A DNA stretch of 64,000 nucleotides. Source: Gaiellaceae bacterium (GTDB taxonomy: Bacteria; Actinomycetota; Thermoleophilia; Gaiellales; Gaiellaceae). The notes below the pieces were generated by a model. It saw only the letters and a list, made by a program, of their open reading frames with translations. It had not been told where the DNA came from and did no database searches. The stretch lies in assembly GCA_026002995.1 (NCBI GenBank), contig BPGK01000001.1, positions 1,550,001 through 1,614,000 on the forward strand, given 5' to 3'. Position numbers and translations under genes: made by a program. Shown here piece by piece: positions 34,185 to 36,578 of the stretch (position 1 is its first letter; each line of letters opens with the position of its first letter).

Positions 34185-34670
34185 CTACGCGCCCGCGACG
34201 GGCTCGTCCGTCGCTCGGTGGCCGGTGGCGCGCAGCTCCTCCTCGAGCTCCGCCTCGCGCCTCGCAGCCGCCTCGCGAGCCACTCTCGCAGCCTCTCGGA
34301 CATCGCGGCGGGCGCGGAGGGCGGCGAGCCCGTGCGAGACGGCGGCCGAGAGGCCGGTCACCTTCTTCACCGGAGTGGTGACCGCGGTCGAGACGGCGCG
34401 CACGGCCGTGTCGGCGCTCTCGGCCATCGCCACCGCGCTGTCCGTCACGACGTCGAGCTTGTCGAGCTGGTCGTTCACGCGATCGACCGTCCCCCCAGCC
34501 TTGACGAGCACGGGGAGGAAGTCGCGCTCGGTGCCCGCGATCAGCGAGGTGAGGCGTCTGAACGTCCCGCCCATGCGGACGAGCATGTACGCGAGGCCGG
34601 CCCCGCACGCGAGGAAGAAGACCGCGAGCGCGTAGTTCAGGACGTCGCCCGAGCTGAGTGCGAGAGGCAT
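34185..34670 (-). CDS. membrane-anchored protein, DUF948-like
   Basis: 161 residues from ATG 34670. One N-terminal transmembrane helix (LNYALAVFFLACGAGLAYML), then an amphipathic region (TERDFLPVLVKAGGTVDRVN, QLDKLDVVTDSAVAMAESAD) and an Arg/Glu/Ala-rich helical tail. This matches the DUF948 style of small membrane-anchored proteins often found beside alaS in actinobacteria. Function unknown. Confidence 0.7.
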   Translation of the reverse strand: MPLALSSGDVLNYALAVFFLACGAGLAYMLVRMGGTFRRLTSLIAGTERDFLPVLVKAGGTVDRVNDQLDKLDVVTDSAVAMAESADTAVRAVSTAVTTPVKKVTGLSAAVSHGLAALRARRDVREAARVAREAAARREAELEEELRATGHRATDEPVAGA

Positions 34671-34677
34671 GGCCGGG

Positions 34678-34683
34678 ATCCTA
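34678..34683 (-). promoter_or_regulatory. -10 box for the DUF948-like gene made from the mnmA stop codon
   Basis: Minus strand TAGGAT. TAG (34681-34683) is the mnmA stop. A 7-nt gap leads to ATG 34670. Same arrangement as at aroKB/aroQ and ftcD/hutH. Confidence 0.5.
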
Positions 34684-35949
34684 GTCGGGGCGAGAGGCGC
34701 TCGTGATGACGGCGGCCCCGACGACCGCGTCGTCGTCGTAGAGCACGGCGACCTGGCCCGGGGCGACCGCCTCGGCCGGGCGCTCGAGGTCGAGGACGAT
34801 CCTCCCACCCGCCTCGAGGACGCGGGCCGGCACGGGCTCCGACCGGTAGCGCAGCTTCGCCTCGACCCGCTCGACAGGGACGTACAGGCGCCCTTCCCCC
34901 TCGACGCGCGTCGCGGCGAGCGCCTCGCGCGGCGCGACGACGACGGTGTTCGAGGCAGGCTCCGTTCGCAGCACATAGAGCGGCCGCGCGGTCGCGAGAC
35001 CGAGCCCCCGGCGCTGCCCCGGGGTGAAGCGCCAGTACCCGTCGTGGTCTCCGAGGACCCGGCCCTCGAGATCGACGACGTGCCCTCGCCGCGGCGCCAA
35101 GCCCTCGCGCGCGAGGAACGCCCGGTAGTCGTCTCCCGCGAGGAAGCAGGCCTCCTGGCTCTCGGGCCGCCCGGCGGCCGCGAGGCCCGCGCGCGCGGCC
35201 TCCGCGCGCGTCTCGGTCTTCGTCTGCTCGCCGAGGGGGAACCGGATGCGAGCGAGCGCCCGCGGGTCGACCGTGGCGAGCATGTACGACTGATCCTTCC
35301 GGCGATCCGCCGCCCGGGCCACGAGGAGCCGGCCGTCCCGCTCGACGATCCTCGCGTAGTGGCCCGTCCACACCTGCGAGGCGCCGGCGCGCTCGGCGAA
35401 GGCGAGGAGGGCGTCGAAGCGGAAGGCCCCGTTGCAGCGCACGCACGGGTTCGGGGTCGTCCCGTCCTCGTAGGCCCGCCGGAACGGCTCGACCACGGCC
35501 GCGCGAAAGGCGTCACGGAGGTCGAGCGTCACGTGTGGCAGGCCCAGGCGATGGCAGGTCGCCCGGGCCTGCGCGACCGAGCGTGGCGAGCAGCAGACGC
35601 GCTCGGCCGCGCGCCCGCGCGGGTCCTGCCAGAGGCGCAAGGTGACCCCGAGCGCATGCGGGCCGGCCCGGAGGAGCGCGACCGCGCTGTCGACGCCTCC
35701 GCTCATCGCGACGACGACCCGTCGCGGGTCGGGGGCGGCGACGAAGACCTGACTGAGCGCCGCCGCGAGCGCCTCCACCGCGAGCGGCTCGCCCCCGACG
35801 GCGGCCGCCTCGAGCAGGGTCAGCCCCGCAAGGGGGCGCTCGACACCGGGCGCGTCCGCGGCGACGATGCGCTCGCCGTCGACGGCGAGACGCACGAGCG
35901 CCCACGCGCCGTCGCGCGTCGCATCGCCGACGACTTCCTGAACCGGCAC
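34681..35949 (-). CDS. mnmA: tRNA 2-thiouridylase MnmA with N-terminal NifU-like extension
   Basis: Thiolates U34 of tRNA-Lys/Glu/Gln. About 422 aa. Residues about 75-420 are MnmA: PP-loop VVVAMSGGVDSAVALL, NPCVRCNGAFRFDALL (first catalytic Cys), GHYARIV, KDQSYMLATVD, RPESQEACFLAG (second Cys), GYWRFTPGQRRGLGL. Residues 1-70 (VGDATRDGAWALVRLAVDGE, AGLTLLEAAAVGGEPLAVEA) resemble a NifU/IscU-type fold but contain no Cys. Start GTG 35949 is preferred because TAGCGT (35957-35962) lies 7 nt before it; a GTG at 36012 is also in frame. Confidence 0.9.
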   Translation of the reverse strand: MPVQEVVGDATRDGAWALVRLAVDGERIVAADAPGVERPLAGLTLLEAAAVGGEPLAVEALAAALSQVFVAAPDPRRVVVAMSGGVDSAVALLRAGPHALGVTLRLWQDPRGRAAERVCCSPRSVAQARATCHRLGLPHVTLDLRDAFRAAVVEPFRRAYEDGTTPNPCVRCNGAFRFDALLAFAERAGASQVWTGHYARIVERDGRLLVARAADRRKDQSYMLATVDPRALARIRFPLGEQTKTETRAEAARAGLAAAGRPESQEACFLAGDDYRAFLAREGLAPRRGHVVDLEGRVLGDHDGYWRFTPGQRRGLGLATARPLYVLRTEPASNTVVVAPREALAATRVEGEGRLYVPVERVEAKLRYRSEPVPARVLEAGGRIVLDLERPAEAVAPGQVAVLYDDDAVVGAAVITSASRPD

Positions 35950-36152
35950 AGCTCCCACGCTACCCGCGTCGCGCGGTCGCGTCGGAGAGACGCTCGACCC
36001 CACTGCCGACACTCCGGCCGGTGCGAACCTGGACGTGCCAGGTGGGTGCCGTGCGGGACGCGACCGTGGCCGGGCCCCGACGCCGACTCCCTTCGCGTGT
36101 GTGTTGGTTCACGTATGGGCCGAAGCCGCGAGCGGGGTCGAGCACCTCCACT

Positions 36153-36578
36153 CTAGCCGCTCTCCTCCGTCGCGAAGCGCCACTCGAGCTCAACGGTGCC
36201 CTCGATCCCGAGCAGCTCGGCGAGCGCCTCGGTCACCTCGAGCTGCCGCCCCGGCTCGACGAGCGCGTTGTCGATCACTTCGGTCAGCACCTGCTTCCCC
36301 CGGTACCGGAGCACGAGCTTCGCGCCGCAGGGAAGCACCGCGTGGGAGACGCCGAGCGACTCCGGGCCGAGCACCTGGCCGCACGTCGTCCGCAGCGCGT
36401 CGCCGGCCGGCCCGCGCGAGCCGGCGAAGGCGGTCGTCCACGCCACCGGCGCCCGGAGACCCGCGAGGATCTCGGACGTTGACGGCTCGGACCGTCGCTC
36501 GACGACGGCGAGCGCCGCGGTCGCGGCGACGAGCGCGGCGGCGGCGAGCAGGAGGAGACGCTGCGCGAGGAGCTCCAT
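36153..36578 (-). CDS. membrane-anchored double-psi beta-barrel (RlpA-like) protein
   Basis: 141 residues. An N-terminal hydrophobic helix (LLAQRLLLLAAAALVAATAA) is either a signal or an anchor. The rest (TTCGQVLGPESLGVSHAVLP, CGAKLVLRYRGKQVLTEVID, RQLEVTEALAELLGI) follows the RlpA/expansin-like double-psi barrel pattern, with two Cys that could pair outside the cell. It is 6 nt after the aspS stop, so probably cotranscribed. Peptidoglycan binding is inference from the fold. The 200 bp upstream of mnmA, at 35950-36152, hold no gene I recognise. Confidence 0.6.
   Translation of the reverse strand: MELLAQRLLLLAAAALVAATAALAVVERRSEPSTSEILAGLRAPVAWTTAFAGSRGPAGDALRTTCGQVLGPESLGVSHAVLPCGAKLVLRYRGKQVLTEVIDNALVEPGRQLEVTEALAELLGIEGTVELEWRFATEESG

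What the first reader, a model, noticed from the sequence alone, without database searches (positions are those of the whole stretch)
34681..35949. MnmA fused to a Cys-free NifU/IscU-like domain
The MnmA core begins at about residue 75. The preceding stretch matches the pattern of Fe-S scaffold proteins (GD...LxLxVDGxRI...LxGxTLxEA...LAxEAL) but has no cysteine, so it cannot hold a cluster. MnmA receives sulfur as persulfide from a cysteine desulfurase through relay proteins, so a scaffold-like domain could be a docking platform for the desulfurase, or a relic of a fused scaffold. Both MnmA cysteines (NPCVRCN and QEACFLAG) are intact.
Basis: partly seen in the sequence, partly recalled or inferred. 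Interest (0 to 1): 0.5.

Follow-up and report, generated by a model that had tools for sequence, protein, structure and literature searches.

The report
tRNA enzyme with a worn-down IscU
In this bacterium's family a tRNA-sulfur enzyme carries a shrunken relic of an iron-sulfur scaffold protein that its relatives carry nearly whole; the relic has lost its cluster-binding residues yet is still kept by selection, which gives a natural test of how iron-sulfur parts serve tRNA thiolation.

Summary
In detail: a 422-aa MnmA (34681-35949, minus) has a cysteine-free N-terminal stretch of about 73 residues, and its GTG start is supported by a -10 element 6-7 nt upstream in 21 of 26 family sequences. The stretch is a decayed IscU domain. 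Pfam cannot see it, but its family profile matches the IscU-like domain fused to MnmA in related families (score 50.9; best of 200 column shuffles 17.8), and one such domain folds as IscU. The fusion recurs in other families of the phylum; elsewhere iscU lies separately upstream of mnmA. Of 119 fused domains none keeps both His and the third Cys of the IscU site. In the window's family the second- and third-Cys segments are deleted, yet the rest changes as slowly as the catalytic core. IscS-type desulfurase was not found in 27 of 29 of its genomes, so docking of IscS is unlikely. The MnmA is the CC-CxxC-C type, whose Thermus member holds a [4Fe-4S] cluster (PMC8584467). Most likely the relic is now a cluster-free structural part of MnmA; its exact role is untested.

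The parts
34681..35949 (-). mnmA-type gene, 422 aa, with N-terminal IscU remnant
35734..35949 (-). Cys-free remnant of a fused IscU-like domain, residues 1-72
   Evidence: profile match to fused IscU-like domains; no Pfam hit; purifying selection
35851..35904 (-). residues 16-33 (WALVRLAVDGERIVAADA), aligned to the strand pair of IscU that follows CGD
   Evidence: the model shows two strands here but at low confidence
35740..35826 (-). residues 42-70 (GLTLLEAAAVGGEPLAVEALAAALSQVFV), aligned to the TLLEAA turn and the last long helix of IscU
34705..35721 (-). MnmA core (HUP, PRC-barrel and beta-barrel domains), residues 77-415
35590..35595 (-). Cys119-Cys120, the 'CC' of the C-type MnmA motif
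   Evidence: invariant in 22 of 22; CC[SGA] in 153 of 161 cores
35434..35445 (-). Cys169-x-x-Cys172, the CxxC of the C-type motif
   Evidence: invariant in 22 of 22; NPCxxCN in 161 of 161 cores, partly circular because cores were picked with a pattern around this motif
35146..35148 (-). Cys268, last Cys of the CC-CxxC-C motif
   Evidence: invariant in 22 of 22; [EDQ]SQxxCF in 161 of 161 cores
35957..35962 (-). TAGCGT, likely -10 element of a leaderless mRNA, 7 nt before the GTG
   Evidence: TANNNT ends 6-7 nt before the start in 21 of 26 family sequences

Best explanation
The gene descends from an iscU-mnmA gene fusion in Actinomycetota, which grew out of an iscS-iscU-mnmA gene row (inferred). 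In the window's family the fused IscU domain has lost its metal site: the first-Cys position is Gly or Asp (once Asn, once Cys) and the segments bearing the second Cys and the His-Cys pair are deleted (shown). A part of about 70 residues remains (by alignment two strands and the closing helix of IscU) under selection as strong as on the catalytic core (shown). It most likely works as a cluster-free structural part of MnmA, for instance by packing the closing IscU helix on the HUP domain and so holding the enzyme's fold or its tRNA entrance (inferred). The Fe-S or sulfur for the CC-CxxC-C site must then come from outside, most simply from the SUF system (SufS and SufU are present in the genome; the link is inferred).
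For: Profile homology with shuffle control. One representative each of f2, f3, f4, f6, f7, f8, f9 and f11 passes the Pfam NifU_N cut-off, 8 of 8, and one fused domain is IscU by sequence (4eb5_C, E 1.5e-20) and fold (TM 0.77 over the target, rmsd 1.2). In the MnmA-core tree f1 joins f2 and f3 (SH-aLRT 99) and the remnant state needs one change (support 92). Pooled pN/pS 0.27 for the remnant against 0.31 for the core in 16 within-genus pairs; mean identity 66% against 68%, linker 48%. No IscS-type desulfurase in 27 of 29 family genomes, but one lies directly upstream of the fused gene in f2 (2 of 2 genomes with MnmA) and f3 (1 of 1). The genome has adjacent SufS and SufU, both over the NCBIfam cut-off.
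Against: No structure: the model of the remnant has low confidence (block means 41-66 in residues 1-70), so packing on MnmA is not shown. Against only the three f2/f3 domains the profile match is weaker (probability 73). Selection shows that the part matters, not what it does. The within-genus pairs are not independent and synonymous sites are heavily changed (pS about 0.5). Two family genomes and one do have an IscS-type enzyme although their MnmA carries the ordinary remnant.
Confidence: 0.57

Rival explanations
1. The remnant is a docking platform for a cysteine desulfurase (SufS, since IscS is usually absent), bringing sulfur to MnmA without carrying it.
For: The ancestor domain is IscU, a desulfurase partner; the f2 and f3 relatives have a desulfurase gene directly upstream.
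Against: The deleted segments include the second-Cys and His-Cys loops. No IscS-type enzyme was found in 27 of 29 family genomes. SufS has its own SufU beside it.
Confidence: 0.2
2. The remnant adds tRNA or anticodon-loop contacts near the MnmA entrance, a new role of the old IscU strands and helix.
For: Sits in front of the HUP domain; invariant G8-D9 and conserved arginines R12 (20 of 24), R20 (24), R27 (21), R38 (19) and R77 (24); kept by selection. The arginines were noticed on rechecking; the odds were raised from 0.10 for that.
Against: No docking or structure could be done, so it is unknown whether these residues are exposed.
Confidence: 0.13
3. A neutral relic on its way out; the sequence is kept only by shared ancestry.
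For: Other lineages show decay of the same domain: f8, f15, part of f6, and 7 of 17 f6 genes have no domain at all.
Against: pN/pS 0.27 pooled, no worse than the core; the length is nearly fixed, with small insertions in L005, L026 and L027 only.
Confidence: 0.07
4. The N-terminal stretch is unrelated to IscU and the resemblance is chance.
For: No Pfam or NCBIfam hit for residues 1-76 alone; Foldseek with the low-confidence model shows no IscU among the 50 rows listed.
Against: hhalign score 50.9 against at most 17.8 in 200 shuffles; same position and sister families with the longer domain.
Confidence: 0.03

Closest known systems
C-type (CC-CxxC-C) MnmA, Thermus thermophilus MnmA (PMC8584467, PMC11784392, passages read)
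   Same: All five motif cysteines present; NCBIfam equivalog NF001138 passed
   Different: Carries an N-terminal IscU-derived domain; of the 80 named loci, only L055-L059 showed the fused domain and L054 the remnant, the other 74 none
IscU / clostridial NifU scaffold (TIGR03419, PF01592; A. fulgidus IscU 4eb5_C)
   Same: The longer fused domain of relatives has the fold and part of the site
   Different: The window's remnant lacks every site residue and two segments; even the longer fused domains (119 rows, 116 distinct) never keep both His and the third Cys
iscS-iscU-mnmA gene rows of Bacillota and some Actinomycetota
   Same: Same partners in the same order; a separate IscU-like ORF within about 1.6 kb upstream of mnmA in 11 of the 80 named loci
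   Different: Separate genes there, one gene here
SufU
   Same: Distant homologue of the fused domain
   Different: Fused domains score better with IscU/NifU than with SufU; the genome's own SufU is a separate gene next to SufS

Membership tests
MnmA, CC-CxxC-C type | NCBIfam equivalog score over the curated cut-off | tested here: met
   NF001138 339.1 bits against 284
MnmA, CC-CxxC-C type | CC, CxxC and C cysteines | tested here: met
   C119, C120, C169, C172, C268
MnmA, CC-CxxC-C type | binds [4Fe-4S] and is oxygen-sensitive | not testable with these tools
   reported for Thermus MnmA in PMC8584467 (passages read)
IscU/NifU_N scaffold (window's N-domain) | match to PF01592 | tested here: not met
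   no hit for residues 1-76 or the whole protein at E <= 10
IscU/NifU_N scaffold (window's N-domain) | site residues Cys-Asp-Cys-His-Cys | tested here: not met
   none kept, two segments deleted
IscU/NifU_N scaffold (window's N-domain) | common descent with IscU-like domains | tested here: met
   hhalign with shuffle and reversal controls; position and sister families
IscU/NifU_N scaffold (window's N-domain) | IscU fold | tested here: inconclusive
   model confidence 41-66 in residues 1-70
IscU scaffold (longer fused domain of relatives) | complete Cys-Asp-Cys-His-Cys site | tested here: not met
   0 of 119 keep both His and third Cys
IscU scaffold (longer fused domain of relatives) | IscU fold | tested here: met
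   one representative only, L059: 4eb5_C TM 0.77 over the target, rmsd 1.2

The most novel reading that the evidence does not exclude
In Actinomycetota IscU was welded to a cluster-type MnmA and changed from a general scaffold into a private partner: every fused copy read here gave up the persulfide-receiving third Cys, the neighbouring His, or both, and 75 of 119 keep just the four ligands (Cys, Asp, Cys, His) with which free ISCU2 binds one iron. It then decayed several times, in the window's family down to a cluster-free module that MnmA can no longer do without. The series would be a natural experiment on whether MnmA needs cluster or sulfur delivered in cis.
Probability: 0.35. Interest if true: 0.68.

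Novelty: new variant of a known kind. Interest (0 to 1): 0.5.

Why it matters
Whether MnmA uses an Fe-S cluster or a persulfide relay is disputed (PMC11784392, passages read). A scaffold domain fused to the cluster-type MnmA, in versions with three, two, one and no site cysteines among related families, lets the question be tested by comparing natural enzymes and swapping their N-terminal domains. It also shows a scaffold turning, step by step, into a part without its chemistry.

Tried and rejected
Chance resemblance: rejected by profile comparison with 200 column shuffles and a reversed profile. A start near residue 70: rejected by conservation, stops just upstream in 16 of 26 sequences and the -10 element. 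Intermediate forms inside the family: L026 and L027 looked intermediate but lie deep within f1 in the tree, so they are not ancestral. A simple rule that the third Cys goes with IscS: f2 and f3 fit, but f22 has a desulfurase-like gene (by motif) directly upstream in 8 of 8 fetched neighbourhoods and yet lost the third Cys, and f4 lost it although 21 of 32 genomes hold an IscS-type gene, so the rule fails. The motif search misses some: it did not report the IscS that one search finds next to the separate iscU in G044. Structure of the remnant: the window model is too unsure there, and Foldseek with it listed MnmA and other nucleotide-binding enzymes, no IscU, in the 50 rows shown. Which way f5 went (never fused, or split again) is open: it sits among fused families with weak support (83).

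Limits of counts. The 119 fused domains are those scoring 25 bits or more with my profile among 164 rows; three pairs are identical, so 116 are distinct (77 His only, 12 third Cys only, 27 neither). Dropped before that count: 25 f1 rows with a readable N-terminus and L054 (all below 25 bits), one f1 row cut by a contig end, 9 unfused rows (f5, f28, f50, L080), 7 f6 rows without domain, L248 and L259. Two of the 119 are cut at a contig end and lack the first two site positions. L026 and L027 were left out of the f1 profile used in hhalign, and L026, L027 and L031 out of the identity figures. The 8 separate IscU were picked by a pattern that demanded the first three site residues, so only His and the third Cys are a fair test. 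The E <= 1e-45 limit for 'IscS-type' is mine; no genome of the 149 passed the NCBIfam cut-off. Family sizes (such as 29 for f1) were counted by hand. The trees are quick ones with SH-aLRT support only, and the outgroup was not one side of any branch, so the root is unsure. Match lists were capped or partial.

Full report
The object. The minus-strand ORF 34681-36012 encodes MnmA; the likely start is GTG 35949, giving 422 residues. NCBIfam names it MnmA over the cut-off and Pfam finds its three MnmA domains from residue 77 on. Residues 1-76 match no Pfam or NCBIfam family and hold no cysteine.

The start. In 16 of 26 sequences of the family an in-frame stop lies 84-91 codons before the SGGVDS motif, just above a start codon at -80 to -82. 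TANNNT ends 6-7 nt before the chosen start in 21 of 26, the window included; composition shuffles gave 0.44 on average and at most 4. In the window it is TAGCGT, 7 nt before GTG 35949.

Relatives. MnmA was found in 141 of 149 genomes of the class. Group codes f1 (window's family), f2 and f3 (same order) and f4-f11 (same class) are the tool's; no names are given, but named Thermoleophilia and Solirubrobacterales records fall among them in the tree, so the class is taken to be Thermoleophilia and the phylum Actinomycetota. In f2, f3, f4, f7-f11 and part of f6 the gene has roughly 120-150 residues in front of MnmA. One representative each of f2, f3, f4, f6, f7, f8, f9 and f11 was scanned and 8 of 8 matched NifU_N (PF01592) over its cut-off, E 1.9e-7 to 1.9e-23; two f1 genes in the same call (L005, L027) did not. 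L059, which groups with f11 in the tree, was modelled with high confidence: its N-domain is IscU, best match A. fulgidus IscU from the IscS-IscU complex (by sequence E 1.5e-20). For the three fused proteins scanned, the nearest scaffold model in NCBIfam is the clostridial NifU.

The window's stretch is the same domain, worn down. A profile of 24 family N-domains against a profile of 25 fused IscU-like domains scores 50.9 (probability 96, E 4.9e-9); 200 column shuffles reach at most 17.8 and the reversed profile 10.5. Against the three f2/f3 domains alone it is weaker (probability 73, score 31.4). The alignment keeps the strand pair after CGD, the turn TLLEAA and the closing helix LAxDALxxAL, and drops the helix that bears the second Cys and the loop that bears His and the third Cys. 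The first-Cys position is Gly or Asp, once Cys (L021) and once Asn (L054). All 25 f1 genes with a readable N-terminus (window included), L054 and L260 have this form; five of 26 have one cysteine somewhere before the core.

It is not free to drift. Over 16 within-genus pairs of six genera the pooled pN/pS is 0.27 for the remnant and 0.31 for the core; mean identity is 66% and 68%, while the linker between them has 48%.

The wider series. Reading of 20 such regions confirmed the fusion in 17 (f22, f54, f72, f15); the three from f28 and f50 have iscU as a separate gene directly upstream. The same separate arrangement is found in f5 of the class, and a separate IscU-like ORF upstream of mnmA in 11 of the 80 named loci, in Bacillota, Desulfuromonadales, WOR-1 and Actinomycetota. 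So the fusion most likely arose from such a gene row (inference).

The site. Calling the five IscU site residues C1, D, C2, H, C3 (human Cys69, Asp71, Cys95, His137, Cys138; matched by motif), the 8 separate IscU all keep H and C3. Of 119 fused domains 0 keep both: 80 keep H only, 12 C3 only, 27 neither; 75 keep C1, D, C2 and H (116 distinct). The work on human ISCU2 says that free ISCU2 binds iron with C1, D, C2 and H and that C3 receives the persulfide (PMC11021402, passages read). So most fused domains keep the iron site of free IscU but cannot take persulfide in that way; f2, f3, f54, f72 and part of f6 keep C3. In f8 only C1 is left (19 of 19); in f15 the site is broken in various ways. 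On the MnmA-core tree the step between a four-ligand site and a decayed or missing one needs at least 5 changes, and the f1 remnant is one.

Partners. An IscS-type desulfurase (TIGR02006, E <= 1e-45) is found in 2 of 29 f1 genomes, 0 of 9 f7, 1 of 18 f9, 0 of 3 f10, 0 of 2 f11, but 2 of 3 f2, 1 of 1 f3, 21 of 32 f4, 15 of 15 f5, 17 of 18 f6 and 17 of 19 f8. In f2 and f3 it lies directly upstream of the fused gene. In a second sample of 31 f1 genomes, partly the same, one had such a gene, G418, whose MnmA still has the ordinary remnant. The window's genome has SufS and SufU side by side, both over the NCBIfam cut-off.

Reading. Fusion, loss of at least one of H and C3, and repeated decay are shown as a pattern; the order is inferred from the tree. 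That the f1 remnant is a structural part of MnmA is the most likely reading because the site segments and usually IscS are gone while selection stays; docking to SufS and a tRNA contact remain possible, the latter a little more than I first put it because several arginines are conserved. The MnmA itself is the CC-CxxC-C type; the Thermus member holds [4Fe-4S] and is inactive in air (PMC8584467, passages read), while for the E. coli type cluster against persulfide is disputed (PMC11784392, passages read).

Print. Searches of the held papers for MnmA with NifU and fusion, MnmA with IscU and fused, trmU with NifU and domain, IscU with MnmA, operon and trmU, and MnmA with IscU and lineage names listed no title or abstract start on this fusion; apart from passages of the papers cited, hits were judged by listing only, and searches listed part of what they found (15 of 22, 10 of 171). 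A paper on Thermoleophilia markers does not name MnmA, TrmU or NifU in its main text (PMC6544083). Subscription papers are not held, so it may be known there or in domain databases.

Noticed in passing
35957-35962 and 26 family sequences: Conserved TAGCCT/TAGCGT-like -10 element 6-7 nt before the mnmA start (21 of 26), as for a leaderless mRNA; in many relatives its TAG is the in-frame stop.
   Followed up: yes
L202-L205, L207-L209 (f6): 7 of 17 f6 genes read have MnmA without any IscU domain although 6 others of f6 keep three cysteines; the domain was lost or never gained there.
   Followed up: partly
L248 (G209, f22): An in-frame TAA separates the IscU-like part from MnmA in one f22 genome; a split gene or a sequence error.
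   Followed up: no
L220-L234, L046, L047, L139, L140 (f8): All 19 f8 fused domains keep only the first Cys, the second turned to Ser or Ala, while 17 of 19 f8 genomes have a high-scoring separate IscU on the same contig as an IscS-type gene, away from mnmA.
   Followed up: partly
L168-L173, L258 (f15): A second decay of the fused IscU domain outside the class, with the site broken in several ways.
   Followed up: partly
34185-34670 and 36153-36578: Neighbours of mnmA: a protein with a DUF948 match below the cut-off downstream (then alaS) and a 141-aa protein without Pfam match upstream.
   Followed up: partly
PDB 9hln, 9i7r, 9hlv, 9hm3, 9hmj: Solved MnmA structures that match the fused profile best; they may bear on the cluster question and were not examined.
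   Followed up: no
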